DNA of 64,000 nt from Aggregatilinea lenta (GTDB lineage: Bacteria > Chloroflexota > Anaerolineae > Aggregatilineales > Aggregatilineaceae): positions 1,116,001 through 1,180,000 of the forward strand of contig NZ_BFCB01000003.1 of assembly GCF_003569045.1 (NCBI RefSeq). The letters run 5' to 3'. Below are positions 20,362-42,542 of the stretch, in pieces (the stretch's first letter is position 1; each line of letters starts with the position of its first letter). Made by a program: the position numbers and the translations under genes. The notes below the pieces were generated by a model. It saw only the letters and a program-made list of their open reading frames with translations, was not told the DNA's origin and ran no database searches.

Positions 20362-20409
20362 TAAACCGGTTTACTAAACCGATTTAATCACACTTTGGCG
20401 TTTTGTCAA
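20362..20409 (-). promoter_or_regulatory. Promoter with two tandem LacI-type operators
   Basis: On the minus strand a -35 TTGACA (20404-20409) and a -10-like TTAAAT (20382-20387) are 16 bases apart. Two near-palindromes with central CG, TAAACCGGTTTA (20362-20373) and TAAACCGATTTA (20375-20386), lie side by side over the -10 and the expected start of transcription. Repeated central-CG palindromes of this size are typical LacI-family operators. Probable repressor: the LacI protein at 14679-15713 or the one at 12301-13317. Confidence 0.78.
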
Positions 20410-20712: not shown

Positions 20713-21711
20713 TCAGCGTTTGCGCGTGTAGCGCGCGATGAAGTTGTAGGGCGAGGGCAGTGGGATCGCGCTGGCCGCGTCCAATTGCGCGACCTCGTCT
20801 GCCGAGAGCGACCAGCCCGCGCAGCCGAGGTTTTGCTCCAGTTGTTCTGGCGTGCGCGCACCGAAGATGGGCGCGGTCACACCGGGCTTGTTCAGCACCC
20901 AGTTCAGCGCGACCTGGGCGGGAGACTTACGGCGCGCCTCAGCGATCGCCACGAGTGTATCGACGATTTCCCAGCACTGGTCTGTCTCGCGCTGTTCCGG
21001 CAGATCATCCCAGCGATCGGCGCGCCCGGCGCGGCTGTCGGACGGCGGCGGCTGGTTGCGCTTATACTTGCCGGTGAGCCATCCTCCGGCCAGTGGCGAC
21101 CACGCGATCACGCCGACGCCTTGTTCCTGGCACAGCGGCAGCAGCTCCCATTCCGGGCTGCGTACCAGCAGGCTGTACTCCGGCTGAAGGCAGTCCATGC
21201 GCGCCCAGTTATGCTTCTCGCTGAGCATGAGCGAGCGCATCAGTTGAGATGGCGTGTAGTTGGACGCGCCGATGTAGCGGATCTTGCCCATCGTGACGAG
21301 GTCGTTCAGGGCGCGCAGCGTTTCCTCCAGCGGGGTGGAGGCGTCCCAGCAGTGTGTCTGGTAAATGTCGATATAGTCGGTTTGCAGTCGTCGCAGGCTG
21401 GCATCGACCTGATGAAAGATGTGTTTGCGCGTCAGGCCGGTGTCGTTGGGACCGCTGCCTGCCGGGAAAAATACCTTGGAGGCGATCACCACCTGCGATC
21501 GGTCCTGATTCTTCAGCCAACTCCCCAGGATCGTTTCGGACTGGCCCTCGTTATAAATATTGGACGTGTCGAAAAAGTTGCCCCCGGCGTCCAGGAACTG
21601 GCTTGCCATGCGGTGTGCGGTCGTTTCGTCGGCCCCCCAGCCGAACGTCTGCGTGCCGAGGCACAACTCGGACACCTTCAGGCCGGTGCGCCCCATGTAG
21701 CGGTATTCCAT
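20713..21711 (-). CDS. Aldo/keto reductase
   Basis: A 332-residue NADP-dependent (beta/alpha)8 reductase. The catalytic tetrad is visible: D48 and Y53 (FFDTSNIYNEG), K79 (VIASKV) and H120 (IYQTHCWD). The C-terminal NADP-binding segment is VTAPIFGARTPEQLEQNL. The group resembles YajO/oxidoreductase-type AKRs that reduce sugars and other carbonyls. AAGGAG precedes ATG 21711. It lies 61 bp after the FGGY kinase gene on the same strand, so the two are probably an operon that converts and phosphorylates a sugar or polyol. Confidence 0.9.
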   Translation of the reverse strand: MEYRYMGRTGLKVSELCLGTQTFGWGADETTAHRMASQFLDAGGNFFDTSNIYNEGQSETILGSWLKNQDRSQVVIASKVFFPAGSGPNDTGLTRKHIFHQVDASLRRLQTDYIDIYQTHCWDASTPLEETLRALNDLVTMGKIRYIGASNYTPSQLMRSLMLSEKHNWARMDCLQPEYSLLVRSPEWELLPLCQEQGVGVIAWSPLAGGWLTGKYKRNQPPPSDSRAGRADRWDDLPEQRETDQCWEIVDTLVAIAEARRKSPAQVALNWVLNKPGVTAPIFGARTPEQLEQNLGCAGWSLSADEVAQLDAASAIPLPSPYNFIARYTRKR

Positions 21712-23631: not shown

Positions 23632-23693
23632 TTGCGTGCGACTCTTTTCTTGATTATAATACAGCTAATCACCTGTAATAACAAGATGACAGG
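23632..23693 (+). promoter_or_regulatory. Promoter with GntR-type operator, site 1
   Basis: TTGCGT (23632-23637), 17 bases, TATAAT (23655-23660), then a 22-bp inverted repeat at 23672-23693 of the form CnTGTnAT-N6-ATnACAGG, here CCTGTAAT...ATGACAGG. The operator lies where transcription would begin. The same repeat occurs at 28604-28625 and 28935-28956, in front of the isomerase and GntR genes. This promoter points to the binding-protein gene at 24384; an overlapping minus-strand TATAAT could serve the kinase gene. Confidence 0.68.
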
Positions 23694-24383
23694 ATAACAC
23701 ATGTCGTTCTCGTGCGACCGCTTCAGTGCGACGCCAAGCCCCGCCCGACCAGCGGGTGACGCTCAGGTTCGCGTTGGCATCGGTCGGCGAGAGCGCTTTT
23801 TGTTTGAACGCCCCAATAGATGCACGCCATTAGACCTGACCCGACTACCCCGTTTCTGGATCGTACAACGGTTGCGGCAATTTACTTGCCTTACGCTCAA
23901 CTGGTTTATTTCCACTCGTATCGCTCGCTCGATTCGTTCCACATCGCACGCCGTACGGGACGCGCGTCGCACCCTCACGGCTCCCAATGAGATATCGTTC
24001 TGCTGGTTTCGCCTGGCAAGGCGCACGGTTCGCTTGACAGCCTGAGGCCAGAGGCCGCCCGTCCGCGTCGATCTATTCGACCGGGCGGTGGGGAGGCTCT
24101 GGTTTGGAAACCGGAAAAAGTTAAACGTTCGGGGCAGGTGGCCCGGCCTTTTGCCGATCCACGGCTCCGGTCACACCTTACGGTCGTCACGATGGTTATT
24201 GCTTCCAACTGTTGCAGGCGCACTTAACATGATCTCCCCATAATCGAAGTCGAACTGCACGAAGCAGCGTCTGGGCGATTTACCTGGCCGTACGAGAAAG
24301 GAGGAGGCCGCAGCGTCGTAGACCGCAAGACGATTCTTATCGTTCGCCGACTTAAAAATTAGCAACTTAGTGAGGGGACAACG
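23694..24383 (+). other. Long untranslated leader of the CUT1 transporter operon, possible structured RNA
   Basis: About 690 bases lie between the promoter at 23632-23660 and the binding-protein start codon. I see no convincing protein: an open frame at 23701-24045 follows an AGGA but has an Arg-rich, shadow-like composition. At 24048-24102 a nested stem is visible: CCAGAG with CTCTGG outside, CCGCCCG with CGGGCGG inside, and TCGA with TCGA at the tip. A second hairpin, GGTTT-GG-AAACC, follows at 24101-24112. It does not match any riboswitch I can recall. An unmapped second promoter nearer the gene is equally possible. Confidence 0.35.
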
Positions 24384-25880
24384 ATGACAAAAAGGTTCTT
24401 TTCGATCGTGTTCGTGGTCGCAATGGTACTCGGACTTGTTCCACTGAGCACCCATGCGCAGGACGACAAGCCGTTTGAAGGCATGAAAGTGGTGGTCGTG
24501 ACCCAGGAAGGGCGCTCGATCGGCGGCCCCGTCGAGGACTTCGCGCCTGAATGGGAAGAGATGACCGGCGGCGAAGTGGAGCTTCAGCAGTTCGCGTTCG
24601 GCGACCTGTTTGAAAAGATGATCACCGCCTTCGAAACCGGCTCTGGCGCGTACGACATGCTGATTTTCCCCGCCGACTGGGCGGGCGATTTCATGGCATC
24701 GGGTTACCTGGAGCCGATTTCCGACGAACTGAAGGCTCAGGTGGACTGGGAAGACATAATCCCGCTCTACAGCGACCGAATCGTCGCCTGGGGCGATCAG
24801 GTGTACGCGCTGCCGTATGACGGTGACTCGCACATGCTGTACTACCGCAAGGACCTCGTCGACAACGCGGAATACGCGGCTGAGTTCGAGGCTGAGTACG
24901 GCTATCCGCTGGCTGAGCCGACCACCTGGAACCAGTACATCGATATTGCCAAGTTCTTCAATGGCAAGGAAGTCGTGCTCGATACCGAGGGCAACGAAGG
25001 CCCGATCTACGGCACGATGGAAGCCCAGAAGCGCAACGCGCAGAGTTACTGGGTGTATCTCTCCCATGCGACCGGCTACGGCAAAGTTCCGGGCAACCCG
25101 TGCTTCTTCTTTAGCTGCGAAGACATGACGCCGCAGGTCAACAACCCCGGCTGGGTCCGCGCTCTGACCGAGTACGTGGAGATCGGGCAGTACGGGCCGT
25201 CGGAAATGGTCAACTGGGACGTCGCGGACACGCGCGTTTACTATCCCTCCGGCATGTCGGTCTTCAATATCGACTGGGGCGATGTCGGCCCGATCTCGAT
25301 CGATCCTGAAGCATCGGTCATCCAGGGCCTGGTCGGCTTCGCGCCGCTGCCGGGTGGCGAGCAGTACTGGGACTACGAGGCGGGCGAATGGGTCACCCCT
25401 GAGTCGGGCGTGAACCGCGCACCGTTCATCGCCTTCGGCGGCTGGATCATCGGCGTGGCGGCGGACAGCGATGTCAAGGAAGCCGCGCTCGACTTCGCAG
25501 CGTTCATGGCCGATCCGGAAATGGTGAAGCAGCTCGCGGTCACAGGCGGCACGGGCATCAACCCGGCGCGCTTCAGCCAGTTCGAAGCGCTCGACCTCTG
25601 GGTCAGCGCGGGCTTCGACCAGGCCAGCGCGGAAGACTACCTGGATGCCGTCCTCAGTGGCATCAACGATCCGAACGCAGTGCTCGACCTGCGCATCACC
25701 GGTTCGGCTGAGTACCTCCAGACCCTGGATGTCGAGATCGCGCGGGCCATTGCGGGCGAAGTGACGCCGCAAGAAGCGCTGGACAACGTGGCGCAGCAGT
25801 GGAACGAGATCTCCGATCGCCTGGGGCGTGACGCGCAGCTCGACCAGTACCGCGCGGCGGTGGGTTATACGGCGGAATAA
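24384..25880 (+). CDS. Extracellular sugar-binding protein of CUT1 ABC transporter
   Basis: A 498-residue secreted binding protein, longer than the ~420 usual for the family. The signal peptide MTKRFFSIVFVVAMVLGLVP ends near STHAQDD without a lipobox cysteine. The mature domain resembles SBP_bac_1 proteins (YDMLIFPADWAGDF, VYALPYDGDSHMLYYRKDL, MSVFNIDWGDVGPI) and has a Cys-containing insert CFFFSCED near residues 244-251 that might form a disulfide. GAGGGG precedes ATG 24384. A terminator-like hairpin separates it from the permease genes. It is likely regulated by the GntR protein through site 1. Substrate unknown. Confidence 0.88.
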   Translation: MTKRFFSIVFVVAMVLGLVPLSTHAQDDKPFEGMKVVVVTQEGRSIGGPVEDFAPEWEEMTGGEVELQQFAFGDLFEKMITAFETGSGAYDMLIFPADWAGDFMASGYLEPISDELKAQVDWEDIIPLYSDRIVAWGDQVYALPYDGDSHMLYYRKDLVDNAEYAAEFEAEYGYPLAEPTTWNQYIDIAKFFNGKEVVLDTEGNEGPIYGTMEAQKRNAQSYWVYLSHATGYGKVPGNPCFFFSCEDMTPQVNNPGWVRALTEYVEIGQYGPSEMVNWDVADTRVYYPSGMSVFNIDWGDVGPISIDPEASVIQGLVGFAPLPGGEQYWDYEAGEWVTPESGVNRAPFIAFGGWIIGVAADSDVKEAALDFAAFMADPEMVKQLAVTGGTGINPARFSQFEALDLWVSAGFDQASAEDYLDAVLSGINDPNAVLDLRITGSAEYLQTLDVEIARAIAGEVTPQEALDNVAQQWNEISDRLGRDAQLDQYRAAVGYTAE

Positions 25881-25908
25881 CGCTCTTCTGAAGTTGAAGG
25901 TCTGATGC

Positions 25909-25948
25909 AAAAAAGCGCTACATCCAACGTAGCGATGTAGCGCTTTTT
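25909..25948 (+). terminator. Intrinsic terminator/attenuator between binding protein and permease genes
   Basis: A 13-15-base perfect stem, AAAAAGCGCTACATC / GATGTAGCGCTTTTT, with a 9-base loop and a run of five T, 28 bases past the binding-protein stop codon. It is the best intrinsic terminator in the window. Partial readthrough would yield much more binding protein than permease, which is the usual need. Confidence 0.85.
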
Positions 25949-25981
25949 GCGATCACGCGGTTGCCAGGAAGAGAGGCTACT

Positions 25982-26995
25982 TTGGCACAGGCATCGTCCG
26001 ATCTCACCATCGAAGAGGGCCAGGGTACGCGCGACGACCGGATCATGAAGCGCGTATTTTTGTCGCCTACCGTTTTTGTGCTGTTGGCGCTGTCCATATT
26101 CCCGCTGCTGTGGTCGCTGGGAATCAGCTTCACCGACATCCAGCGCGGCGGTTCCACGACCGCGCGGGTGGAGGAGGCCACCGGCGAAACCGGCACGGGC
26201 TTCCTGGGCCTGGACTGGAGCCTGAGCGCGCGTAATTATGACCGGCTGCTCCACGACTCACGGTTGTGGATTGCGGCGCGAAATACATTTATTTACGTGT
26301 TTTTGGGCGTGACGATTCAATATGTGATCGGGCTGCTGCTGGCCCTGGTGCTCAACCAGCAGTTTCGAATGCGTAGCCTTGTACGTGTGATATTCCTGAT
26401 CCCGATGATGACCACGCCGGTTGTGGTCGGCTACACCGGGCGGATGATGTTCGACTCGTTCAAGGGACCGATCGCCGACCTGCTGCGCCACGCGGAGGTG
26501 TGGTGGGCGCAGGTGCCGGTGATCGGTTCGGATATCAACCTGTACGTGCCCTGGATGACGGAAACCAAGTGGGCGCGCTTCACGATGGTGCTGATGGACA
26601 GCTGGCAGTGGATCCCGTTCATGATGCTGATTCTGCTGGCGGGTATGCAGGCGATCCCCGACGACGTGTACGAGGCCGCCCGCGTAGACGGCGCGTCGTC
26701 GTTCCAGATCTTCCGCCGGATCACGTTCCCGATGCTGCTGCCGCTCTCGGCGACGGTCATTCTGATTCGCGGCCTGGAAATCTTCAAGATCATCGACGTG
26801 ATCGTCGTCACGACGGGCGGCGGTCCCGGCTCCGCGACTGAGAGCCTGACGATGTACATCTACAAAACCGCGCTGACCTTCGGCAACTATGGCTACGCGG
26901 CGGCGATCTCGTTCGCGCTGCTGGTGCTGGTGGTCATCTTTTCGACGCTGTTCCTGGGCCTGATCAGACGTTTCATACCACGCGATCAGTACTAA
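25982..26995 (+). CDS. Carbohydrate ABC transporter permease, MalF type
   Basis: A 337-residue membrane protein. I chose TTG 25982, which follows GAGAGG at 6 bases; ATG 26045 ([13 protein letters not shown]) is an alternative that removes an acidic cytoplasmic tail. The first helix is [19 protein letters not shown]; the coupling loop is [25 protein letters not shown] (blocks [18 protein letters not shown]). The extracellular loop between helices 1 and 2 is longer than usual ([19 protein letters not shown]). It pairs with MalG at 27011-27871. Confidence 0.9.
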
Positions 26996-27010
26996 TCGAG
27001 GAGGCTACCC

Positions 27011-27871
27011 ATGAAACGTCGCTCGCGTCGCTCGACTCTGTTGATCTACTTCGTCGTGATCTTCTGGTCCTTCATCGTGTTGTTTCCGTACTACTGGCTG
27101 GCCACGACGTCGTTCAAGAAGCCGCTGGACGCCACACGCTTCCCGAAGTACGTGCCGTTCTACGACTTTCAGCCCACAACCGAACACTGGGATTACATCC
27201 TGACCCAGCGTTGGGACAAAACCTCAGGTAGTTTTCGCAACAGCCTGATCATCGCGTCGGGCAGCACGTTCCTGGCGGTCCTGCTCGGCTCGATGGCCGG
27301 GTATGGCCTGTCGCGCTTCAAGTACTACTGGAAGAGGCTGAGGTGGCGGAACGACAACATCGCGTTCTGGATCATCTCACAGCGGTTCTTACCTCCCGCC
27401 GTGTTCATCATCCCGTTCATGATCGCCTATGTTGACCTCGGCCTGATCGATACGCACGCCGGGCTGATCATCGCCTACACGATGTTTAACATCCCGTTCG
27501 CGGTGTGGATCATGCGCGATTTCTTCAACGGCCTGCCGACCGACCTGGAAGACAGCGCGCGCGTGGATGGGGCGACGCGCTGGAAGGCGTTTTACCGCAT
27601 CGTGCTGCCGCTGAGCGCGCCGGGATTGGTATCGGTGGCGATTCTGTCGTTCATCTTCTCGTGGAACGAGTACCTGTATTCGCTGATGCTGACGAACGCC
27701 GAGGCGGTGACGCTGCCGCCGTTCATCGCGGCGCAGAACACACAGCGCGGCGTGGAGTGGTGGTACATTTCGGCGCTGGCGATGCTCGCCATCGTACCCG
27801 TCATCCTGTTCGGGCTGGCGCTGGAACGGTTCATCACACGCGGGCTGGTCGCGGGGGCGCTCAAAGGCTAG
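27011..27871 (+). CDS. Carbohydrate ABC transporter permease, MalG type
   Basis: A 286-residue membrane protein with six hydrophobic segments and the coupling loop [29 protein letters not shown] ([17 protein letters not shown]). It ends [15 protein letters not shown], a standard MalG C-terminus. GAGGAGG precedes ATG 27011, 15 bp after MalF. It completes a CUT1 importer that lacks its own ATPase gene. A hairpin lies between this gene and the convergent isomerase gene. Confidence 0.92.
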
Positions 27872-27927
27872 CGGGGCAGGGGAAGCCAGGCCTAAAGGCG
27901 GACTTTGACGCCGACTTTGGAGATGGA

Positions 27928-27960
27928 CGTGAGGCTCACGCGATGATGGTGAGCCTCACG
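27928..27960. terminator. Hairpin between convergent transporter and isomerase genes
   Basis: CGTGAGGCTCAC-gcgatgatg-GTGAGCCTCACG, a perfect 12-base stem with no T-run, placed 56 bases past the MalG stop codon and 11 bases from the isomerase stop codon. It probably serves both directions. Confidence 0.65.
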
Positions 27961-27971
27961 ATAGGTCAGGC

Positions 27972-28556
27972 TTACGTGTCGGTATCGCCCCAGCGTGGGT
28001 TGTCGATCACGCCGTACGGGTCGCTGTTGTCGACGATCAGCTTGCGGAAGCCTTTTTGCTCGATCGTGCCATAGTCGTGCCCGGCGTCGCCAGGGTAGAC
28101 GAAGAACGTGATCAGATCTTCGTCCTGGCCCGTATTCACCGAGCGGTGCGCCCAGCGCGGCAGCACGTACAGTACGCGTCCGGGCCGCAGCTCCTCGACA
28201 GCCCACTCGCCTTCGGGCGTTTCCATGACCATCACACCCTGGCCCTGCAGGCAGTAGTAGATCTCGCCCGTTTCCAGCACGTTGTGGAAGTGTCCCTTGG
28301 TCATGAAGTACTCACTGCCGACTTTGCCGGGATGCACGATCGAAACGCCATGCAGCAGCTCCCCGGCTACTTCGGGACGCTTGAACTCGTAGACCTCGTA
28401 GAGCAGCGCGTCTTCGCGGTCTAGCATCGCCTGATAGGCGTCCTGGTCGAGGTACTGGCCTTGCATGTCGGTGAGACGTCGCTCAATGTGATTGTCGTAG
28501 TTTTCTGGGATGAAGGTGCCGGCAGGTAGGCCAAAAGTATAAGGTTCGGTTCTCAT
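27972..28556 (-). CDS. Cupin-type phosphoglucose isomerase
   Basis: A 194-residue single-domain cupin with the archaeal-type PGI signature TKGHFHNVLETGEIYYCLQG. Metal ligands would be H89, H91, E98 and H137, matching the spacing known from Pyrococcus PGI (H88, H90, E97, H136). This family interconverts glucose 6-phosphate and fructose 6-phosphate with a metal ion and is unrelated to the common Pgi fold. Here it likely isomerises a phosphorylated sugar imported by the adjacent transporter. It has an excellent promoter with the shared 22-bp operator directly after the -10 element. Confidence 0.86.
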   Translation of the reverse strand: MRTEPYTFGLPAGTFIPENYDNHIERRLTDMQGQYLDQDAYQAMLDREDALLYEVYEFKRPEVAGELLHGVSIVHPGKVGSEYFMTKGHFHNVLETGEIYYCLQGQGVMVMETPEGEWAVEELRPGRVLYVLPRWAHRSVNTGQDEDLITFFVYPGDAGHDYGTIEQKGFRKLIVDNSDPYGVIDNPRWGDTDT

Positions 28557-28603
28557 ATCACGTGTCCTGAGTCGTGGTGCGAAATCCGCTCGTCTGATAA
28601 AAA

Positions 28604-28662
28604 CTTGTGATCCTATGATTACAGGTTATCCCCATTATAGTGGTGTGGCCCGCGCTTGTAAA
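28604..28662 (-). promoter_or_regulatory. Promoter with GntR-type operator, site 3 (isomerase gene)
   Basis: On the minus strand TTTACA (28657-28662), 17 bases, TATAAT (28634-28639). The 22-bp inverted repeat (28604-28625; CTTGTGAT...ATTACAGG as read on the plus strand) covers the expected transcription start. A repressor bound here would block initiation. The segment 28663-28892 between this and the divergent GntR promoter shows no gene. Confidence 0.8.
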
Positions 28663-28892
28663 TATGCCGTTCAGCAGCCGATCGATTGACGTCCGCCACA
28701 GCGAATCGCGCGCCCGGACCTTAGCTCGATTTGCAGCAACTGGCACCAAACGAACGCTTATCAAGCGAAAGCTAGCCGGAGCGCGTGTCAAATGTGCCAA
28801 CGTGGACCGCTGTGTAAGCTCCCGAATCCGGCTTTGTGCCAGTGTTTGTGCCCCGCGACTAAACCAATAGTACGCTAATTTCTGATGAGGCG

Positions 28893-28956
28893 TTGACCTC
28901 GGACAGAACTCTCACTATAATGAAACCAAGACAACATGTTATAACAAGATTACAGG
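28893..28956 (+). promoter_or_regulatory. Promoter with GntR-type operator, site 2 (GntR gene)
   Basis: TTGACC (28893-28898), 17 bases, TATAAT (28916-28921), then the 22-bp inverted repeat at 28935-28956 (CATGTTAT...ATTACAGG). The right arm ends in AGGA, which doubles as the ribosome binding site for the TTG start at 28965. This geometry implies autoregulation of the GntR gene. Confidence 0.8.
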
Positions 28957-28964
28957 ATAACATC

Positions 28965-29798
28965 TTGACTGACTCTGTGGATCGCTCCAGCCCCATTCCC
29001 TACTACATCCAGGTCTGGGATATTCTGCGCGAGAATATCCAAAACGGCATCTGGCAGCCCGGCGAGCAGATCCCGGGTGAGCCGGAGCTGTGCCGGACCT
29101 TTGGCGTCAGCCGCACCGTGATCCGGCAGGCCCTGAACGAGATGGTGCACAAGGGCCTGATCGTGCGCGAAAAAGGGAAGGGCACGTTCGTCGCCACCCC
29201 GAAGATCAGCGAAAGCCTGGTGGGGGAGCTTACCGGTTTTCATCAGAACATGGTCGAGCAAGGCTACAACCCGGTCGCGCAGGTGCTGCGCCAGAACATC
29301 GTTCCGGCCAGCAGCAAGGTGGCGACCTATCTTAACGTCGAGGTCGGATCCCAAATCATCGAAATTGAGCGCCTCCGCTTCATCGATGACCTCCCCATTC
29401 AACTCGTCACGACGTATATCCCGTATGCACTCTGCCCCGATCTGGCGACCGCCGATTTTTCGCACCAATCCCTGTACACGTTTCTCGAGCAGCAGTGCGG
29501 CATCATGATCGCACGCGGGCGGCGCAGCATCGAGGCCGTGCCTGCGAACGAGTATGAGGCGCGCCACCTGAGCGTGAAGAAGGGTGCGCCGCTGATCCTG
29601 CTCGACAGCGTGAGTTACCTGGACGATGGGACGCCCGTGGAATACTACCACGCCGTGCATCGCGGCGACCGGGCCAAGTTCGAAGTGGAGCTGGTCCGCG
29701 TCCGTAAGATGGACGCCAAGGCCGACATGCCACACGAACGGCGGGGCGTACCGTGGGGAGGGGGCCTGGTTGTTCGGAGACAGAACGAAGCCGATTAG
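28965..29798 (+). CDS. GntR-family (HutC subfamily) transcriptional regulator
   Basis: A 277-residue regulator. The winged helix spans about residues 10-75 (PYYIQVWDILRENIQNG, GEPELCRTFGVSRTVIRQALNEM, VREKGKGTFV), followed by a UTRA effector domain (ELTGFHQNMVEQGYNP, IIEIERLRFIDDLPIQL, VEYYHAVHRGDRAKFEVEL). I place the start at TTG 28965 because AGGA lies 7 bases upstream. Apparent starts further up fall in the promoter itself: 28893 is the -35 box and 28920 overlaps the -10. The HutC subfamily senses sugar phosphates and other small metabolites. It likely binds the three 22-bp repeats. Confidence 0.9.
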   Translation: MTDSVDRSSPIPYYIQVWDILRENIQNGIWQPGEQIPGEPELCRTFGVSRTVIRQALNEMVHKGLIVREKGKGTFVATPKISESLVGELTGFHQNMVEQGYNPVAQVLRQNIVPASSKVATYLNVEVGSQIIEIERLRFIDDLPIQLVTTYIPYALCPDLATADFSHQSLYTFLEQQCGIMIARGRRSIEAVPANEYEARHLSVKKGAPLILLDSVSYLDDGTPVEYYHAVHRGDRAKFEVELVRVRKMDAKADMPHERRGVPWGGGLVVRRQNEAD

Positions 29799-34679: not shown

Positions 34680-34723
34680 AGGGACGGCAGCGTCCCTGGT
34701 TTTTGAACGGCACAGGAGGATCT

Positions 34724-35491
34724 ATGGCGCGGCGCTTTGAAGATAAGGTCGTGGTGGTGACAGGCGGCAGCCGGGGCATCGGCTACGCGATCGCCAGCGC
34801 GCTGGTGGACGAGGGCGCGACAGTGATCGTCGCGTCCAAGAACTCAGCGCGGGGCACTGCCGCAGCGGAGGTGCTCAACGCGCAGGACGGCGGTGGACGG
34901 GCCGCGTTCGTTGCCACGGACGTGACCGACAAAGCGCAGGTTGAGGCGATGGTCGCGCAGGTCCTGGCGCAGCACGGGCGGATCGACGCGCTGGTTAACA
35001 ACGCGGGCGTGCACGACAAGGCGGCGTTTTGCGACGAGAGCGAAGACCTGTGGCAGGTCATGTATCGCCAGAACGTGATGGGCGTCGTGCTGCCCTCGCA
35101 GGCCGTGGTGCGCGATATGCAGCGGCGCGGTGAGGGCGGCGCGATCGTACACGTCTCGTCGAAGGCGGGCGTCGTCGGAGAGCCGGGGCACGCGGCTTAC
35201 AGCGCGGCGAAAGGGGCCGTGATCGCCCTGACGCGCGCGATGGCGGTCGAGCTGGCATGGGACCAGATCCGCGTGAACGTGGTCTGTCCGGGACCGGTGC
35301 TGACCGATATGCTGACCGGTAACGTCACGGCGCAGGCCGATCGCGATGCACTGGGCGCGGATGCGCCGTTGGGCCGCATCGGGCTGCCGGAGGACATCGC
35401 GGGCGCGGTGCTGTATCTGGCCTCGGCGGACAGCGGCTGGTGCACCGGGCAGGCGATCAACGTGGACGGTGGCCTGTCGATCCTGAAGTAA
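34724..35491 (+). CDS. Short-chain dehydrogenase/reductase (SDR), second in operon
   Basis: A 255-residue classical SDR: TGGSRGIG (13-20), NNAG (92-95), catalytic S146, Y159 and K163, ending AINVDGGLSILK. AGGAGGA precedes ATG 34724. Upstream open frame overlaps the permease gene and is ignored. Together with the SDR at 31228-31986, the Gfo/Idh/MocA protein and the alcohol dehydrogenase, it gives four different oxidoreductases in one operon, so the pathway probably has several oxidation or epimerisation steps, or handles several substrates. Residues after the second strand (IVASKN) suggest a different cofactor preference from the first SDR. Confidence 0.92.
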   Translation: MARRFEDKVVVVTGGSRGIGYAIASALVDEGATVIVASKNSARGTAAAEVLNAQDGGGRAAFVATDVTDKAQVEAMVAQVLAQHGRIDALVNNAGVHDKAAFCDESEDLWQVMYRQNVMGVVLPSQAVVRDMQRRGEGGAIVHVSSKAGVVGEPGHAAYSAAKGAVIALTRAMAVELAWDQIRVNVVCPGPVLTDMLTGNVTAQADRDALGADAPLGRIGLPEDIAGAVLYLASADSGWCTGQAINVDGGLSILK

Positions 35492-35618
35492 CCGGCTGGA
35501 ACCAGCGCAATAGTAATCGATCGAATCAGCTCTACACGGATATCTGAATTTCACTTGCCTGCCTGCACCGCACCTTCACGCAGCGGCAATCGCAAGCACA
35601 CACGAAGGAGACTCTAGG

Positions 35619-36644
35619 ATGGCTCAGGATGTACGGGTCTGTGTTATCGGCGCGGGGCGTGCGGGCATGGTCCATGCGCGGAACTTCCGCTGGCGCGTGC
35701 CCTATAGTAAGCTGGTCGCGCTGGTCGACGTGAGTGAGGAGCAGGGGCAGAAGTCTGCGGCGGAAGTGGATCTGGGCGACGCGCACTACACTACGCTCGA
35801 ACAGGCCCTCGACGCGACCGAGTTTGACGCGGTCGTCATTACCACGCCGACCTTCACGCACGCCGAACTGGCGATCAAGGCCGCACAGGCGGGCAAGCAT
35901 ATCCTGTGCGAAAAGCCGATGGCGCTGACTCTGGACGAGTGCGACCGCATGATCGCCGCCGCCGAGGAAGCGGGCGTCGTGCTGCAGCTCGCCTTCATGC
36001 GCCGCTTCGATCCGCCCTTCGCCGCCGCGAAGAAGCAGATCGAGGAAGGGCTGATCGGCGACCCGATCATCGTGCGCTCGCTGACGCGCGGGCCGGGTCT
36101 GCCGCCTGCGTGGGCCAACGACGTCAGCCGCAGTAACGGCATGCTGGCCGAAGTCAACAGCCACGACTTCGACGCCGTGCGCTGGCTGGCGGGCAGCACC
36201 TATACCAGCGTCTTCGCACGGGCGGCAACGCTCAAAGCGCCGGAAGTGAAGGAACAGTATCCCGACTTTTACGATACGGCCATCGTCAGCCTGCAACTGG
36301 CGAGCGGCGCGCTGGGCATGATCGACGGCGTGTGCCCCGCGCACTACGGCTACGACGCGCGCGCCGAGGTGGTCGGCACGGCGGGCATTCTGATGATTGG
36401 CGAGCTGCGCGAGACGGCGATCACGCGCGTCACGCGGCAGGATGGCATGATCGAGCGCAACTTCGTATCGTGGCCGCTGCGCTTCAAGGAAGCCTACGTC
36501 GGCGAGGAAACCGACTTTGTGACCTGTATCCGCGAGGGCAAGCAGCCGAGCGCGACGGGACTCGACGGACGCCGCGCGCTCCAGGCCGTGCTGGCTGCCA
36601 ACGAGTCGATCCGCACCGGGCAGGCCGTCGCCATCGCGCAGTAA
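35619..36644 (+). CDS. Gfo/Idh/MocA-family sugar or inositol dehydrogenase
   Basis: A 341-residue oxidoreductase with the N-terminal Rossmann motif VIGAGRAGMVHARNF and the family's CEKPMALTLDEC (EKP catalytic lysine). Then GILMIGELRETAITRV and the C-terminal alpha/beta dimerisation domain. Members include myo-inositol 2-dehydrogenase and glucose-fructose oxidoreductase. The motif MLAEVNSHDFDAVRWLAGS carries the HD pair used in catalysis. GAAGGAG precedes ATG 35619. It probably oxidises a ring hydroxyl of a sugar or cyclitol. Confidence 0.92.
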   Translation: MAQDVRVCVIGAGRAGMVHARNFRWRVPYSKLVALVDVSEEQGQKSAAEVDLGDAHYTTLEQALDATEFDAVVITTPTFTHAELAIKAAQAGKHILCEKPMALTLDECDRMIAAAEEAGVVLQLAFMRRFDPPFAAAKKQIEEGLIGDPIIVRSLTRGPGLPPAWANDVSRSNGMLAEVNSHDFDAVRWLAGSTYTSVFARAATLKAPEVKEQYPDFYDTAIVSLQLASGALGMIDGVCPAHYGYDARAEVVGTAGILMIGELRETAITRVTRQDGMIERNFVSWPLRFKEAYVGEETDFVTCIREGKQPSATGLDGRRALQAVLAANESIRTGQAVAIAQ

Positions 36645-36658
36645 GCGCGGGCAGATAG

Positions 36659-36753
36659 CCCCCACCCCAAACCCCTCCCCCGCGAAGAGGGAGAGGCCTA
36701 AAAACCTGTTTTTCTCCCTTCCCTCCTTGCGGGGGAAGGGGCGGGGATGGGGG
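36659..36753. repeat. GC-rich imperfect inverted repeat
   Basis: About 95 bp with complementary arms CCCCCACCCC...CCCTCCCCCGC and GCGGGGGAAGGGG...GGGGATGGGGG around an AT-richer centre (GCCTAAAAACCTG). It lies between the dehydrogenase genes, inside the long operon. Sequences of this kind are dispersed in many Chloroflexota genomes. It resembles the core of the MITE-like repeats but lacks their terminal repeats. Confidence 0.6.
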
Positions 36754-36859
36754 ATAAGACGCGCCAAACAGGCCAAATTTACACCAGCTTGGCGCGCTAT
36801 AGGGACAATTCATGAATTGCCCACAGTAGATCGACCGAGGGAAGAGACGAGGACACTGT

Positions 36860-37909
36860 ATGCAAGCGGCAGTCTATCATGGCATCGAGGACATCCGGAT
36901 CGAGACGGTTCCCACACCGGAACCCGGTCCTGACGAAGCAGTCATGCGCGTGGGGGCCGCGGGGATCTGTGGGACGGATTTGCGCATCTACGGCAACGGC
37001 CACCACCGCATCCCCGAAGGTGAGACGCGCATCCTCGGTCACGAGCTGGCCGGGGAGATCGTGGCCGTTGGCGCGAACGTGACCGCGCTGAAGCCGGGGA
37101 TGCGCGTGGGCATCGCGCCCAACATGGGCTGCGGCCACTGCCCGCAGTGCGTGGCGGGTTGGACGAATCTGTGCGCGGACTACACCGCGTTTGGCATCAG
37201 CCTCAACGGGGCCTTCGCGGAGTACATGCTCATCACCCAGGAAGCGATCGAGCAGGGCAACATTGTGCCGATCCCGGCAGATGTGCCGATGCACGTCGCG
37301 GCGCTGGCCGAGCCGCTCTCGTGCGTGATGAACGGCCAGGATGCGGTCAACATCCGCCCCGGCGACTCGGTGATGGTCGTGGGCGCGGGGCCGATCGGGC
37401 TGATGCACGTGCAGCTCGCCCGGCTGAGCGGCGCGCGGCAGGTGATCATGAGCGAGCTGTCCGACACGCGCCTCGAAGAAGCGGCGGCGCAAGGCGCGGA
37501 TGTGCTCATTAATCCCGCGCGGGACGACGTGAAGGCGCGCGTGCTTGAGGCGACGGACGGCGAAGGTGCCAACGTAGTGATCATCGCTGCCCCTGCTGCA
37601 CGGGCGCAGGAAGAAGCGCTGGACTGGGTCAGCCGCCAGGGCCGGATCAACCTGTTTGGGGGGCTGCCCAAAGACCGCCCCACCATCCAGTTCAACTCGA
37701 ATCTGGTGCACTACAAGCAGTTGATGGTCACAGGCACAACCGGGTCGAACGTGCGGCAGTATCGCGCGTCGATGGGGCTGATCGTCGCGGGGCGCATCAA
37801 GCTGGACGAGATCGCGCGGCCCCGCCTACCGCTGGACCAGATTCACGAAGGTATCGCGCGCTCGAAGTCCGGCAAGGATATGCGCGTGCTGATCGAGCCG
37901 TCGGCCTAG
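36860..37909 (+). CDS. Zinc-dependent alcohol (polyol) dehydrogenase, MDR family
   Basis: A 349-residue medium-chain dehydrogenase. Catalytic zinc ligands are C37 (GICGTDLR) and H61-E62 (GHELAGE); structural zinc ligands are C91, C94, C97 and C105 (CGHCPQC...NLC). The Rossmann motif is VVGAGPIGL. The pattern fits sorbitol/xylitol or threonine dehydrogenase-like enzymes, which oxidise a polyol or sugar acid with NAD. GAGG precedes ATG 36860. It is in the middle of the operon, after the GC-rich repeat. Confidence 0.92.
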   Translation: MQAAVYHGIEDIRIETVPTPEPGPDEAVMRVGAAGICGTDLRIYGNGHHRIPEGETRILGHELAGEIVAVGANVTALKPGMRVGIAPNMGCGHCPQCVAGWTNLCADYTAFGISLNGAFAEYMLITQEAIEQGNIVPIPADVPMHVAALAEPLSCVMNGQDAVNIRPGDSVMVVGAGPIGLMHVQLARLSGARQVIMSELSDTRLEEAAAQGADVLINPARDDVKARVLEATDGEGANVVIIAAPAARAQEEALDWVSRQGRINLFGGLPKDRPTIQFNSNLVHYKQLMVTGTTGSNVRQYRASMGLIVAGRIKLDEIARPRLPLDQIHEGIARSKSGKDMRVLIEPSA

Positions 37910-37939
37910 CGCGTCACTGCGGAGAAGAGGAGCCAGAAG

Positions 37940-39511
37940 GTGGCCAAAACGTACTTGATCGGTGTGGACCTCGGCACGATGGGCACGAAGGCCGGCATTG
38001 TCGATGCGGACGGCGTCGTCGTCGCGGAAGCCTACGAGGAAACCAGGCTCTACTACCCGCGCCCCGGCTGGGTCGAGCAGTCCCTGGACGAGATTTACGG
38101 CTCGGCGGTGCGCATGATCAGGGCCTGCCTGGAGCAGAGCGGAATCGACCCCGGCCACGTCGCCGGGATCGCCTTCGACGGGCAGATGGCGGGCATCGGC
38201 AGCGTTGGCGCGGAATGGGACAGCCCCACGGGGTACGACTCGTGGCTGGACACGCGCTGCGGGCCGTACATCCCGCGCCTGCAAGAATACGGACGCGAGA
38301 TCATCGGGCTGACGGGCGGACCGCCGACCATCACGCACGGCGCGAAGATCCTGTGGTGGATGCACGAGCGGCCCGACGTGTTCGCGCAGATCGCGCGCTT
38401 CGTTCAACCGGGCGGCTACGTCGCGGGGCGGCTGGCCGGGCTGAAGGGCGACGAGGCTTACGTAGACCGCACTTACATCCACTTCTCGTGCTTCAGCGAT
38501 TCACGCGCGGGCGTGTGGTCCGACGAGCTGACCGGCCTGTTCGGCGTCGATCAGGACAAGCTGCCGCGCATCGTCAATCCGTGGGACGTGATCGGCCACG
38601 TGACTGAAGCGGCAGCACGCGAATGCGGGCTGAAGGCCGGGACGCCCATTGCGGCGGGCTGTGGCGACCAGGCGGCGGCGCAGCTCGGCGCGGCGATGGT
38701 CCAGCCCGGTCTCGTGTTCGACGTGGCGGGCACGGCCTCCGTGCTGGCGCTGGTGTTCGACCAGTTCGTGACCGACCAGGAGCACGGCGCGCTGTTCACG
38801 GCGCACGCGGCGGTCCCTGGCCTGTACTACGCGCTGGGCTACACCAACGGCGGCGGGCTGAATCTGCGCTGGTTCCGCGACGAGTTCGCGCAGCACGAAA
38901 AAGCCGAGGCGCTGGTACGTGGCGAGAACCCGTATCAGGTGCTCGATCGTATGGCGGCGGACATCCCGGCGGGCGCGAATAATCTGCTGTTTCTGCCGCA
39001 CCTGAGCGGGCGCGTCTGCCCCGGCGACCCGAATACGCGCGGCGTGTTTATCGGCCTCAACTGGCTGCATACGCGCGGGCATTTCTACCGCGCCATGCTG
39101 GAATCGCTCGGCTACGAGTACGCGTACTATCTGCGCGTGCTGCACAGCATGCTGCCCGACGGCGACTTTCTGGAGGCGCGTGTCACCGGCGGTGGGGCAC
39201 GCAGCGCGCTGCTCAACCAGATCAAGGCCGATATCCTGGGGCTGCCCTACGTCCGGCTCAACCGCGACGAGTTCTCGGTGCTCGGCTCGGCGATCCTGGC
39301 CGGGTACGCGGTGGGCGTGTTCGACGACATGGCGGCGACGGCGCAGCGCTTCACGCAGCCGACTGAGCGCATCGAGCCGAACATGGCGATGCACGCGCGC
39401 TATCAGCCCTACGTGGACGAGTACATCAAGCTGTTCGAGGCCACGAAGCCGATCTTCGACGATCTGGCCGCCATGCCGGAGCCGGAGAACGAGGCGCTTC
39501 CCGGCCAATAG
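37940..39511 (+). CDS. FGGY-family carbohydrate kinase
   Basis: A 523-residue sugar kinase beginning at GTG 37940 after GAGGAG. The phosphate loop is GVDLGTMGTKAGIVD; further segments are FDGQMAGIG, GCGDQAAAQLGAAMV and RVTGGGARSALLNQIKADI, typical of xylulokinase-like kinases. It lacks the compact N-terminal motifs of glycerol kinase. It is a distant paralogue of the kinase at 21773-23305, which serves another transporter. The product would be a phosphorylated sugar, sugar acid or polyol that the downstream enzymes process. Confidence 0.92.
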   Translation: MAKTYLIGVDLGTMGTKAGIVDADGVVVAEAYEETRLYYPRPGWVEQSLDEIYGSAVRMIRACLEQSGIDPGHVAGIAFDGQMAGIGSVGAEWDSPTGYDSWLDTRCGPYIPRLQEYGREIIGLTGGPPTITHGAKILWWMHERPDVFAQIARFVQPGGYVAGRLAGLKGDEAYVDRTYIHFSCFSDSRAGVWSDELTGLFGVDQDKLPRIVNPWDVIGHVTEAAARECGLKAGTPIAAGCGDQAAAQLGAAMVQPGLVFDVAGTASVLALVFDQFVTDQEHGALFTAHAAVPGLYYALGYTNGGGLNLRWFRDEFAQHEKAEALVRGENPYQVLDRMAADIPAGANNLLFLPHLSGRVCPGDPNTRGVFIGLNWLHTRGHFYRAMLESLGYEYAYYLRVLHSMLPDGDFLEARVTGGGARSALLNQIKADILGLPYVRLNRDEFSVLGSAILAGYAVGVFDDMAATAQRFTQPTERIEPNMAMHARYQPYVDEYIKLFEATKPIFDDLAAMPEPENEALPGQ

Positions 39512-39533
39512 CCGTGAAACAATAGCCGTGAAA
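39506..39533. repeat. Tandem 14-bp duplication across the kinase stop codon
   Basis: CAATAGCCGTGAAA occurs twice back to back (39506-39519 and 39520-39533). The first copy contains the TAG stop codon. It looks like a recent slippage duplication. Confidence 0.85.
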
Positions 39534-39634
39534 ATGGACAGGATCGGCGGACACGCTGACCCCTTCCGTTGAACGCTAAGGATATTTGGCACAGCGGACA
39601 ACAGGACCTCCTATTTACAACGAGACGGTGAACG

Positions 39635-40612
39635 ATGGCTGATAAAATTCTGGTAACCGCACGCTCGTTCCGGCAAACGCCCGGCCCCCACCAGCAGATT
39701 TTGATCGATGCCGGCTACGAGCTGGTGAACAGCCCGCACGATCGCCCGCTGGAGGGGGCGGAACTGGCCGGGTTGGGCGCGGACGTGACAGGTATGCTGC
39801 TCGGCGTGGACCAGTGCGGCGCGGAGGTGTTCGAGCGTGCCGCCCAGCTCAAGGCCATCTCGCGCTACGGCGTCGGGGTGGATAAGGTGGACGTCGCGGC
39901 GGCGACGCGGCACGGTGTGGTCGTGACCATCACGCCCGGCGCGAACGCGATCTCAGTCGCGGAGCTGGCGCTGGGCATGATGTTCGCGCTGGCGCGGCAT
40001 ATCCCGCACCACGACCGCGTGGTGAAGGCGGGCGGTTGGGGGCGCGTGTCCGGCGTGGAGCTGACCGGCGCGACGCTGGGCGTCGTCGGGCTGGGGCGCA
40101 TCGGGCAGGAGGTCGCGCGGCGCGCGATTGGTCTGGGCATGCGCGTGCTCTACTACGATCCCATGCCGTTCCCGCTGGAGCTGATCGCATCGCTCGGCGT
40201 GGAAGCGCGCTCGCTGGACGCGCTGTTCGAAGAGAGTGACTTCATCAGCCTGCACCTGCCGCTCACGGACGAGACGCACTACCTGATCGACGCGACGGCG
40301 CTGGCGCGCATGAAGTCTACCGCGTGCGTGATCAACACGGCGCGCGGCGGACTGGTCGATGAGGCGGCGCTGGCTCAGGCCCTGGCAGCCCGGCAGATCG
40401 CGGGTGCGGCGGCGGACGTGTTCAACGCCGAGCCGCCCACCGATCGCACGCTGGTCGAGTTGGACAACTTCATCGCCGTGCCGCACGCCGGGTCCGCCAC
40501 GCTGCAAACCACGCTGCGCATGGGCCTGATGGCCTCGCAAAACCTGCTGGCGGCCCTGCGCGGCGAGCTGCCCGAAGGCACGGTAAACCCGGAGGTCTTC
40601 GAACGGCCATGA
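39635..40612 (+). CDS. D-2-hydroxyacid dehydrogenase (SerA-like)
   Basis: A 325-residue NAD-dependent dehydrogenase. The NAD-binding motif is GLGRIGQEVARRAIGLGM, the catalytic Arg is in NTARGGLVDE and the catalytic His in VPHAGSATL; a Glu in FNAEPP completes the set. It lacks the C-terminal ACT domain of biosynthetic SerA. Related enzymes act on glycerate, hydroxypyruvate or sugar-derived hydroxyacids. It overlaps the phosphotriesterase-like gene by four bases (ATGA). In this operon it probably reduces or oxidises a C2-C4 hydroxy acid produced by the aldolase or by the earlier steps. Confidence 0.92.
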   Translation: MADKILVTARSFRQTPGPHQQILIDAGYELVNSPHDRPLEGAELAGLGADVTGMLLGVDQCGAEVFERAAQLKAISRYGVGVDKVDVAAATRHGVVVTITPGANAISVAELALGMMFALARHIPHHDRVVKAGGWGRVSGVELTGATLGVVGLGRIGQEVARRAIGLGMRVLYYDPMPFPLELIASLGVEARSLDALFEESDFISLHLPLTDETHYLIDATALARMKSTACVINTARGGLVDEAALAQALAARQIAGAAADVFNAEPPTDRTLVELDNFIAVPHAGSATLQTTLRMGLMASQNLLAALRGELPEGTVNPEVFERP

Positions 40613-41562
40613 ACTTCCAAACCGTGACCGGGCCGGTCCCGGTCGAGGCTGTAGGACTGGCTGATGGCCACGCACACGTCTGGATCGCGCCGCAGAATGG
40701 GGTTGCGCCGGACGTGCGGATCGAGCTGCACGACTACGACCGGATCGAAGCGGAGCTGCGCGACTTCCGCGCGCTGGGCGGTACGCTGCTGATCGACTGC
40801 CAGCCGGGCGGCGCAGGGCGCGACACGACGAAGCTGGCCGCGCTGTCACGCGCGACGGGCCTGCACATCACGGCGACGACCGGGTTTCACCGGCGCATGT
40901 ACTACCCGCCAGACGACTGGCTGTGGTCCGCCACGGAAGACGAGGCTGCGGCCTATTTCGTCGAGGAGCTGACGGCCGGTACGCGCGAGAGCGGCGGCAC
41001 GATCCGCGCGACCACGATCAAGGTCGGCTACGAGGGCACGCCCGAGGGCCAGACACGCGTGCTGATGGAGGCCGTCGCGGAGGCGGCGCGGCAGACCGGG
41101 GTGTTGGTGCTGTTCCATACCGAAGCAGGGCGCAACGTCGAGGCGCTGCTGCCTTTCTTCAGCGAGCGCGGCGTACGCCCGACCCGGCTCTACCTGTGCC
41201 ACGTCGACAAACGGCCCGACCTGGGGCTGCACCGCGAACTGGCGCAGGCCGGGGTGCTGTTGGGCTACGATACGTTCGCGCGGCCCAAGTACAACCCGGA
41301 GCAGGGCGTCTGGAAGCTGCTGCCTGCGTTGGCGGCGGAAGGTCTCGGCAAACATATCGCGATTTGCCTGGATCTGGCATTTCCGGAACAATGGCAGCAT
41401 TATGGCGGCGGGCCGGGGTTACAGTTCCTGCCCACGCAGGTGCTGCCGCGCCTGCGCGCCGAAGGCATCGACGAAGCCACGATGGCCCGGCTGACGGGTG
41501 GCAACATTGCCCGCTATCTTGTTCACCAATCTCTAACCCATCAGGAGTCACACCAGGAGTAA
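40609..41562 (+). CDS. Phosphotriesterase-family hydrolase, candidate lactonase
   Basis: A 317-residue (beta/alpha)8 hydrolase. The binuclear-metal ligands of the PTE family can be placed: H21 and H23 (GHAHVW), bridging K138 (TTIKVGYEG), H170 (VLFHTEAG), H198 (LCHVDKRPD) and D255 (CLDLAF). Family members include organophosphate hydrolases, acyl-homoserine lactonases and, in sugar operons, lactonases for (phospho)aldonolactones. The operon context favours a sugar lactone substrate (inference). The start overlaps the upstream stop by four bases. Confidence 0.87.
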   Translation: MNFQTVTGPVPVEAVGLADGHAHVWIAPQNGVAPDVRIELHDYDRIEAELRDFRALGGTLLIDCQPGGAGRDTTKLAALSRATGLHITATTGFHRRMYYPPDDWLWSATEDEAAAYFVEELTAGTRESGGTIRATTIKVGYEGTPEGQTRVLMEAVAEAARQTGVLVLFHTEAGRNVEALLPFFSERGVRPTRLYLCHVDKRPDLGLHRELAQAGVLLGYDTFARPKYNPEQGVWKLLPALAAEGLGKHIAICLDLAFPEQWQHYGGGPGLQFLPTQVLPRLRAEGIDEATMARLTGGNIARYLVHQSLTHQESHQE

Positions 41563-41564
41563 CC

Positions 41565-42530
41565 ATGTCTGATACAATGGTTGGCCAATCGCACGTACTG
41601 GTGAAGCGCGAAGGTCCTACGATGTATTTCGTCGGCGTCACGACAGGCAAGTCATCGATCATGAAAGTGTTCCCCAAGTGGTCCGACATCCTGGGGCTGA
41701 ACGCGCAGATCGTGGGCTACGACGCGCCGATTCACGCCCAGGACGAGGTGTACCGCGCCATCACCGAGCACATCAAGACCGATCCGCTGTCGAAGGGCGC
41801 GCTGGTGACCACGCACAAGATCGATCTGCTCGACGCCACGCGCGACCTGTTCGAGTATCTCGACCCTTACGCGCAGTTGTGCGGCGAGATCTCCTCGATT
41901 TCCAAGCGCGGCGACCAGCTTCGCGGCCACGCCAAGGACCCAATCACGTCCGGTCTGTCGCTGCAAGCCTTCGTCGAGCCGGGCTATTGGGGCCGCACGG
42001 GCGGCGAGGTGTTGTGCCTGGGCGCGGGCGGCTCGGCGGTAGCAATCAGCGTGTACTTCGCGGGCCTGCCGGACGCGGCGGATCGCCCCAAGAAGTTCAT
42101 CGCGGTCAACCGCAGCGCGCCGCGTCTGGAGTCGCTGAAGGCAATCCACGCCAAGCTGGACACGGACATCGAGTTCGAGTACATCCTCAACGACGATCCG
42201 CGTGTGAACGACGAGATCATGGGCCAGCTACCGCCGTACTCGATGGTGATCAATGCGACCGGCATGGGCAAGGACCGGCCCGGCTCGCCCATCACCGACG
42301 ACGGCCTGTTCCCCGAAAACGGGTGGGCCTGGGAGCTGAACTATCGCGGCGAGCTGGATTTTATGCACCAGGCCGAGCGCCAGCAGGCGAGCCGCGGCGT
42401 GCGCATCGAGGACGGGTGGATTTACTTCGTGCACGGCTGGACGCAGGTCATCGCGGAAGTCTTCGACGTGACGCTGACGCCGGAGATCTTCGCGAAGCTG
42501 GACGATGCCGCGTCGTCGATTCGCAGCTAA
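41565..42530 (+). CDS. Shikimate-dehydrogenase-like protein of unknown substrate
   Basis: A 321-residue protein that begins at ATG 41565 after CCAGGAG, 2 bases past the upstream stop codon. The N-terminal part (YFVGVTTGKSSIMKVFPKW; KGALVTTHKIDLLDATRDLF) follows the substrate-binding domain of AroE. The Rossmann domain has LCLGAGGSAVAISVYF and the NATGMG segment near residue 229. The usual AroE motif SxS for shikimate is replaced by the TGKSSI form, and the Lys/Asp pair is shifted (TTHKIDLLDAT keeps the lysine). It is longer than AroE (~270). It is therefore probably not a shikimate pathway enzyme but a dehydrogenase for a cyclic or branched polyhydroxy acid. Confidence 0.8.
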   Translation: MSDTMVGQSHVLVKREGPTMYFVGVTTGKSSIMKVFPKWSDILGLNAQIVGYDAPIHAQDEVYRAITEHIKTDPLSKGALVTTHKIDLLDATRDLFEYLDPYAQLCGEISSISKRGDQLRGHAKDPITSGLSLQAFVEPGYWGRTGGEVLCLGAGGSAVAISVYFAGLPDAADRPKKFIAVNRSAPRLESLKAIHAKLDTDIEFEYILNDDPRVNDEIMGQLPPYSMVINATGMGKDRPGSPITDDGLFPENGWAWELNYRGELDFMHQAERQQASRGVRIEDGWIYFVHGWTQVIAEVFDVTLTPEIFAKLDDAASSIRS

Positions 42531-42542
42531 GGAGGCGCTGTC

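What the first reader, a model, noticed from the sequence alone, without database searches (positions are those of the whole stretch)
23672..28956. One 22-bp operator at three promoters defines a GntR regulon
The inverted repeat CnTGTnAT-N6-ATnACAGG occurs at 23672-23693, 28604-28625 (reads in the opposite orientation for its gene) and 28935-28956. Each copy is placed just after a good -10 element: upstream of the binding-protein/MalF/MalG operon, the cupin isomerase gene and the GntR gene itself. This links kinase, reductase, transporter, isomerase and regulator into one unit. The GntR start codon is also resolved by this: its AGGA overlaps the operator.
Basis: partly seen in the sequence, partly recalled or inferred. 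Interest (0 to 1): 0.72.

Follow-up and report, generated by a model that had tools for sequence, protein, structure and literature searches.

The report
Tandem-repeat operator of a sugar repressor
Three promoters of a sugar-use gene cluster in a Chloroflexota bacterium carry the same binding site for the cluster's own GntR-type repressor, and comparison with dozens of relatives shows that the site is really a head-to-tail row of 8-base units, an unusual layout for this common repressor family.

Summary
The three sites lie where stated, each just after a TATAAT box. The exact core TGTNAT-N6-ATNACA occurs 3 times in the window (0.01-0.02 expected) and 4 times in the 6.2-Mb genome; the fourth copy looks accidental. 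The GntR protein is a HutC/NagR-type (UTRA) regulator. Among 45 upstream regions of its relatives (50-69% identity) 28 carry the operator in gene orientation, against 0 of 17 weaker matches. A same-family genome has it at the same three targets. So the autoregulated regulon is well supported, though binding is untested.

The "N6 spacer" is conserved (nACARG). The real operator is one inverted half-site followed by direct 8-bp repeats: CYTGTA-ATNACARG-ATNACARG-(ATNACA), with 2-3 units usual and 11 in one relative. One diverged ortholog has another unit (GTACAAGC) with the same period. I infer a NagR-type dimer on TGTNATNACA plus further dimers on the repeats. NanR works this way, but NanR's N-terminal extension is absent here.

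The regulon is also wider: gntR leads a second sugar-transporter operon. Kinase/reductase control is indirect: a divergent promoter's -35 box lies inside site 1. The sugar is unknown.

The parts
23672..23699 (+). Operator 1: CCTGTA + ATAACAAG ATGACAGG ATAACA (inverted half-site plus three 8-bp repeats), between the divergent kinase and transporter genes
   Evidence: the orthologous intergenic region in G744 (L146/L158) carries TGTAATGACAAGATTACA at the corresponding place
23632..23660 (+). Promoter of the SBP-MalF-MalG operon: TTGCGT-17-TATAAT
   Evidence: sequence; promoter plus operator is the only long conserved block in the aligned intergenic regions of the window and G744
23656..23684 (-). 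Possible divergent promoter for kinase/reductase: TTGTTA-17-TATTAT, -35 inside operator 1
   Evidence: 9 of 12 matches; G744 has TTGTCA-17-TATTAT at the same place, read from the sequence printed
28604..28625 (-). Operator 2 (cupin gene): CCTGTA + ATCATAGG ATCACAAG; first unit degenerate, no third unit
   Evidence: an operator also sits upstream of the cupin gene in G744 (L128/L159)
28634..28662 (-). Promoter of the cupin gene: TTTACA-17-TATAAT
   Evidence: 11 of 12 matches
28935..28964 (+). Operator 3 (gntR): CATGTT + ATAACAAG ATTACAGG ATAACATC; the third repeat abuts the TTG start codon
28893..28921 (+). Promoter of gntR: TTGACC-17-TATAAT
   Evidence: 11 of 12 matches
28965..29798 (+). gntR gene, HutC/NagR-type regulator (GntR wHTH + UTRA), 277 aa, TTG start
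   Evidence: Pfam PF00392, PF07702; best solved relative NagR/YvoA, E 1e-46
27972..28556 (-). Cupin-type phosphoglucose isomerase family protein
   Evidence: PF06560; cupin PGI structures, E 3e-55
24384..25880 (+). Sugar ABC transporter substrate-binding protein
   Evidence: PF13416/PF01547
25961..26995 (+). MalF-type permease
   Evidence: PF00528
27011..27871 (+). MalG-type permease
   Evidence: PF00528
21773..23305 (-). FGGY carbohydrate kinase, xylulokinase-like (below the XylB cut-off)
20713..21711 (-). Aldo-keto reductase
   Evidence: PF00248
29946..34679 (+). RbsB-like binding protein, SDR dehydrogenase, AraG/RbsA-like ATPase, RbsC-like permease: second sugar transporter operon behind gntR, probable further regulon member
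   Evidence: order gntR-RbsB-SDR-AraG-RbsC kept in L078, L079, L162; operator directly upstream of the RbsB operon in G756 (L160)
34730..43217 (+). Further catabolic genes in the same direction: SDR, Gfo/Idh/MocA, zinc ADH, second FGGY kinase, 2-hydroxyacid dehydrogenase, PTE-family protein, uncharacterised protein, KDPG-aldolase-like; possible regulon members, no own operator in the window
   Evidence: Pfam; orthologs clustered with gntR and operators in other genomes

Best explanation
The cluster is a sugar-utilisation regulon controlled by its own HutC/NagR-type repressor. Without inducer, GntR binds an operator that overlaps the start of the transcript at the transporter, cupin-isomerase and gntR promoters, blocking RNA polymerase and limiting its own synthesis. 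A pathway intermediate, probably a sugar phosphate bound by the UTRA domain, releases it. The operator is a directional array: one canonical HutC dimer site (TGTNATNACA, GT-N4-AC) continued towards the gene by one or more half-sites at an exact 8-bp period (ATNACARG)n. A first dimer probably takes the palindrome and further dimers the repeats, giving stepwise, possibly cooperative repression. Site 1 probably also covers the divergent kinase promoter. Shown by sequence: sites, promoters, protein family, conservation, 8-bp architecture, recurrence at the same targets. Inferred: that GntR is the binder, repression, inducer class, more than one dimer per operator, control of the kinase.
NagR Arg48, which reads G-4, is Arg50 here, and the operator keeps that G; NagR Arg38, which reads G-5, is Pro40, and the operator has T there.
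Against: No binding, expression or inducer data. In 17 of 45 close upstream regions no standard operator was found; some of these genes may be internal to operons, but this was not worked through. Site 2 has a degenerate first unit (ATCATAGG) and no third unit, so the wide inverted repeat alone may be enough there. NanR's N-terminal extension, needed for its multi-dimer assembly, is absent: in several orthologs stop codons or the operator lie directly before the conserved start. The shuffles keep base composition only, and related genomes are not independent. The kinase promoter is only a 9-of-12 consensus match.
Confidence: 0.77

Rival explanations
1. One reading: a single GntR dimer binds a 22-bp inverted repeat with half-sites TGTNAT and ATNACA either side of a non-specific 6-bp spacer; the repeats matter little.
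For: All three window sites match it exactly, and at site 2 it is the better preserved reading because the first repeat unit is degenerate.
Against: The spacer is conserved and directional (nACARG). HutC sites normally have 4 nt between GT and AC (PMC4494728), which the compact TGTNATNACA satisfies and the wide repeat (12 nt between GT and AC) does not. Relatives extend the array by whole 8-bp units, and L025 keeps the period with a different unit.
Confidence: 0.12
2. The compact palindrome TGTNATNACA is the whole binding site; downstream units are weak auxiliary boxes of the kind described for many GntR regulators and add only local concentration.
For: Suvorova et al. 2015 report weaker extra half-sites 7-12 nt from the palindrome centre in several GntR groups (PMC4494728). 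The first unit is the most constant.
Against: The second unit is nearly as conserved as the first (though both were used to pick the sites), and L033/L034 lack the inverted TGT half but keep two direct units. Extra boxes in that study scored about half of a true half-site.
Confidence: 0.25
3. Another regulator binds these sites and GntR is a bystander.
For: No binding data. Six other GntR-like matches exist in the genome.
Against: The operator tracks this ortholog group across different gene neighbourhoods, right before gntR in gene orientation, and is absent before distant GntR relatives. Specificity residues fit the NagR reading code.
Confidence: 0.04

Closest known systems
NagR/YvoA of Bacillus subtilis (GntR/HutC), dre-site operator (PMC4333415)
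   Same: Closest solved relative by sequence (E 1e-46); same wHTH + UTRA layout; conserved recognition arginine (Arg48 = Arg50) and G-4; half-site geometry GT-N4-AC.
   Different: Arg38 replaced by Pro40 and G-5 by T; palindrome centre AT not TA; NagR operators are single imperfect palindromes, here half-sites continue as an 8-bp direct array.
NanR of E. coli, (GGTATA)3 operator bound by three dimers (PMC8012715)
   Same: GntR-family repressor of sugar genes on closely spaced direct repeats.
   Different: NanR has no UTRA domain and belongs to the FadR subfamily; its cooperativity needs a 32-residue N-terminal extension absent here; the repeat sequence differs.
NagQ and FarR, HutC-subfamily regulators listed with direct-repeat sites (TGGTATT; TGTATTAWTT) (PMC4494728)
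   Same: Same subfamily, direct-repeat operators.
   Different: Different repeat sequences; no palindrome-plus-8-bp-array design is described for them in the passages read; no Chloroflexi HutC regulator was in that survey.
Additional half-sites near GntR palindromes (PMC4494728)
   Same: Extra half-site 7-12 nt from the palindrome centre.
   Different: There weaker; here nearly as conserved as the core and repeated, up to 11 units.

Membership tests
GntR family, HutC (UTRA) subfamily regulator | N-terminal GntR wHTH and C-terminal UTRA domain | tested here: met
   PF00392 E 1e-19, PF07702 E 5e-45
GntR family, HutC (UTRA) subfamily regulator | Operator core with 4 nt between GT and AC | tested here: met
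   TGTNATNACA in operators 1 and 3 and most ortholog operators; one mismatch at operator 2
GntR family, HutC (UTRA) subfamily regulator | Usual TA-centred core GTMTAKAC | tested here: not met
   Centre is AT in every operator aligned; a sequence difference from the common consensus, not a loss of geometry
NagR-like operator reading | Arg48 reads G-4 and Arg38 reads G-5 | tested here: inconclusive
   Arg48 kept (Arg50) with G-4 kept; Arg38 is Pro40 with T at -5: consistent covariation but not full membership
NanR-type tandem-repeat repressor | Closely spaced direct-repeat operator | tested here: met
   8-bp units, 2 to 11 copies
NanR-type tandem-repeat repressor | 32-residue N-terminal extension before the wHTH | tested here: not met
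   About 10 residues before the wHTH; stop codons or operator directly upstream in several orthologs
NanR-type tandem-repeat repressor | Three dimers bind cooperatively | not testable with these tools
   Needs EMSA, ultracentrifugation or cryo-EM
Autoregulated sugar regulon | Same operator at regulator and pathway/transport promoters, recurring in relatives | tested here: met
Autoregulated sugar regulon | Identified substrate and inducer | not testable with these tools
   FGGY, cupin, AKR and transporter families are not substrate-specific enough

The most novel reading that the evidence does not exclude
A HutC-type GntR repressor group assembles as a polar row of dimers on 8-bp-phased half-sites starting from one palindrome, without NanR's N-terminal extension, and the number of repeats (2 to 11) sets the strength or steepness of repression in different species.
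Probability: 0.38. Interest if true: 0.6.

Novelty: new variant of a known kind. Interest (0 to 1): 0.42.

Why it matters
Most GntR/HutC operators are single palindromes, and how symmetric dimers use direct repeats is known in few cases. This ortholog group gives a natural series of operators (2, 3 and 11 units, one with a different unit but the same 8-bp period) in front of the same regulator, so the link between repeat number, dimer number and regulation can be tested directly. It also gives a HutC operator motif and regulon in Chloroflexota, for which the 2015 survey (PMC4494728) had no HutC example. The regulon as such is ordinary biology.

Tried and rejected
1) Idea that the 690-bp leader between operator 1 and the transporter gene is a decayed gntR copy (relatives have gntR there): tblastn with ortholog GntR proteins and blastn gave nothing beyond the promoter/operator itself. 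Rejected. 2) The 114-aa ORF starting just after operator 1 (23701-24045): no tblastn hit at 1e-8 in the ortholog loci; probably not a gene. 3) CRP-type site: the core is 18 bp, not CRP's 16-bp TGTGA-N6-TCACA (own knowledge). Rejected. 4) Fourth genome match C3:1017202: between a LacI-type gene and another operon, overlapping a LacI-like palindrome; treated as chance. 5) search for related loci in genome contigs found no relatives; the genome search was used instead. 7) First period test had a strand error for minus-strand loci and was discarded; one search is the corrected version. 8) Pathway naming: the kinase scores just under the XylB cut-off, others fit families only; I did not assign a sugar.

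Full report
What was checked. The three sites are present exactly as given and are the only exact matches to TGTNATN6ATNACA in the window. Expectation is 0.010 (composition) to 0.017 (first-order Markov) per 64 kb. In the genome (6.2 Mb, five contigs) there are four exact matches, three of them here. The tool's test with two mismatches allowed is not significant (11 against 9.5 expected), so the case rests on the exact matches, their placement and their conservation.

Promoter context. Operators 2 and 3 follow strong sigma-70-like promoters (11 of 12 matches, 17-bp spacers). Operator 1 follows a perfect TATAAT with a weak -35. The operators start 8-13 bp after the -10 box, over the start of the transcript, which fits a repressor that blocks polymerase.

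The protein. GntR carries a GntR wHTH and a UTRA domain. The nearest solved protein is NagR/YvoA. In the alignment NagR Arg48, which reads G-4, is Arg50, and NagR Arg38, which reads G-5, is Pro40. The operator has G at -4 and T at -5, which agrees with that code. Operator-bearing orthologs do not show Arg at position 40, while several of the distant NagR-like relatives without the operator do.

The operator across relatives. Relatives were found by whole-genome protein searches in the class, phylum and order. Of 45 close upstream regions, 28 have two or more consecutive ATNACA units at an 8-bp period in gene orientation, most with the inverted TGT half in front; none of 17 weaker matches do (one of the 17 is a partial match to a close relative). 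In 20 genomes the refined motif TGTNATNACARGATNACA with at most one mismatch was found 41 times, the reversed control never.

Why the inverted repeat is not the full description. A test with no motif at all, scoring self-similarity at periods 5-15, gives period 8 as the best in 20 of the 32 ortholog regions with a single best period, and no preference in the distant set. Examples: L028 ATTACAGG ATAACAGG ATAACAGG; L081 with 11 units; L025 TGTATGTACAAGCGTACAAGCGTACAAAT, a different unit in the same phase. The logo is CYTGTA-ATNACARG-ATNACARG-(ATNACA) (selection on ATNACA inflates those columns, hence).

The regulon. In G744, same family, operators lie between kinase and transporter, before the cupin gene and before gntR: the same three targets as here, on two contigs. 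In G751, G765, G232 and G313 gntR itself leads the SBP-MalF-MalG genes. In the window gntR leads RbsB-SDR-AraG-RbsC, an order kept in L078, L079 and L162, and in G756 that operon has its own operator. Orthologs of the genes further downstream (SDR, Gfo/Idh, ADH, FGGY, 2-hydroxyacid dehydrogenase, PTE-like, KDPG-aldolase-like) recur beside gntR elsewhere, but a terminator-like hairpin at 34680 leaves the extent of the transcript open. Control of kinase and reductase is inferred from a divergent promoter-like sequence with its -35 in operator 1 (TTGTTA-17-TATTAT; TTGTCA-17-TATTAT in G744). Suvorova et al. found that single sites in divergons usually serve both operons.

Mechanism. Best supported is a repressor with a canonical HutC dimer site extended by a polar array of half-sites. 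Several dimers per operator is an inference; NanR shows it is possible in the GntR family (three dimers on (GGTATA)3), but NanR uses an N-terminal extension that is not present here, so contacts would have to differ. A single dimer with auxiliary boxes remains a real alternative.

Novelty. Direct-repeat operators are on record for NagQ, FarR and NanR, and extra half-sites for many GntR groups (PMC4494728), so this is a variant, not a new kind. The conserved palindrome-plus-8-bp-array and its variable length are, as far as the papers found here show, not described for this group; only open-licence papers were searched.

Noticed in passing
L081:4464-4550 (G295:C58): Operator array of 11 consecutive 8-bp units before a gntR ortholog, built of a repeated 16-bp pair (ATTACAGTATGACAAG), as if grown by duplication in register.
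   Followed up: partly
L025/L070, upstream of gntR (G295:C448): Ortholog with a different repeat unit (GTACAAGC repeats after TGTATGTACA) but the same 8-bp period and a palindromic start.
   Followed up: partly
23694-24383: About 690-nt untranslated leader between operator 1 and the transporter gene, 57% GC, no similarity to relatives' leaders; G744 has about 300 nt there.
   Followed up: partly
23653-23660: The -10 region ATTATAAT is self-complementary, so it could serve promoters in both directions.
   Followed up: no
G000:C3:1197657-1198385 (L058), about 18 kb beyond the window end: A gntR-like match of the same subfamily with three in-frame stops: probably a pseudogene.
   Followed up: no
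20365-20390: AAACCGGTTTACTAAACCGATTTAAT before a maltose-type transporter/alpha-amylase-like operon on the minus strand: looks like a LacI-type operator.
   Followed up: no
41562-42530: Conserved protein without a Pfam match at 1e-5, in the cluster in many relatives (58-83% identity); looks shikimate-dehydrogenase-like by eye.
   Followed up: no
L072 and L077, next to gntR: A second, divergent GntR-like gene (35-36% identity) beside the ortholog in G388 and G094.
   Followed up: no
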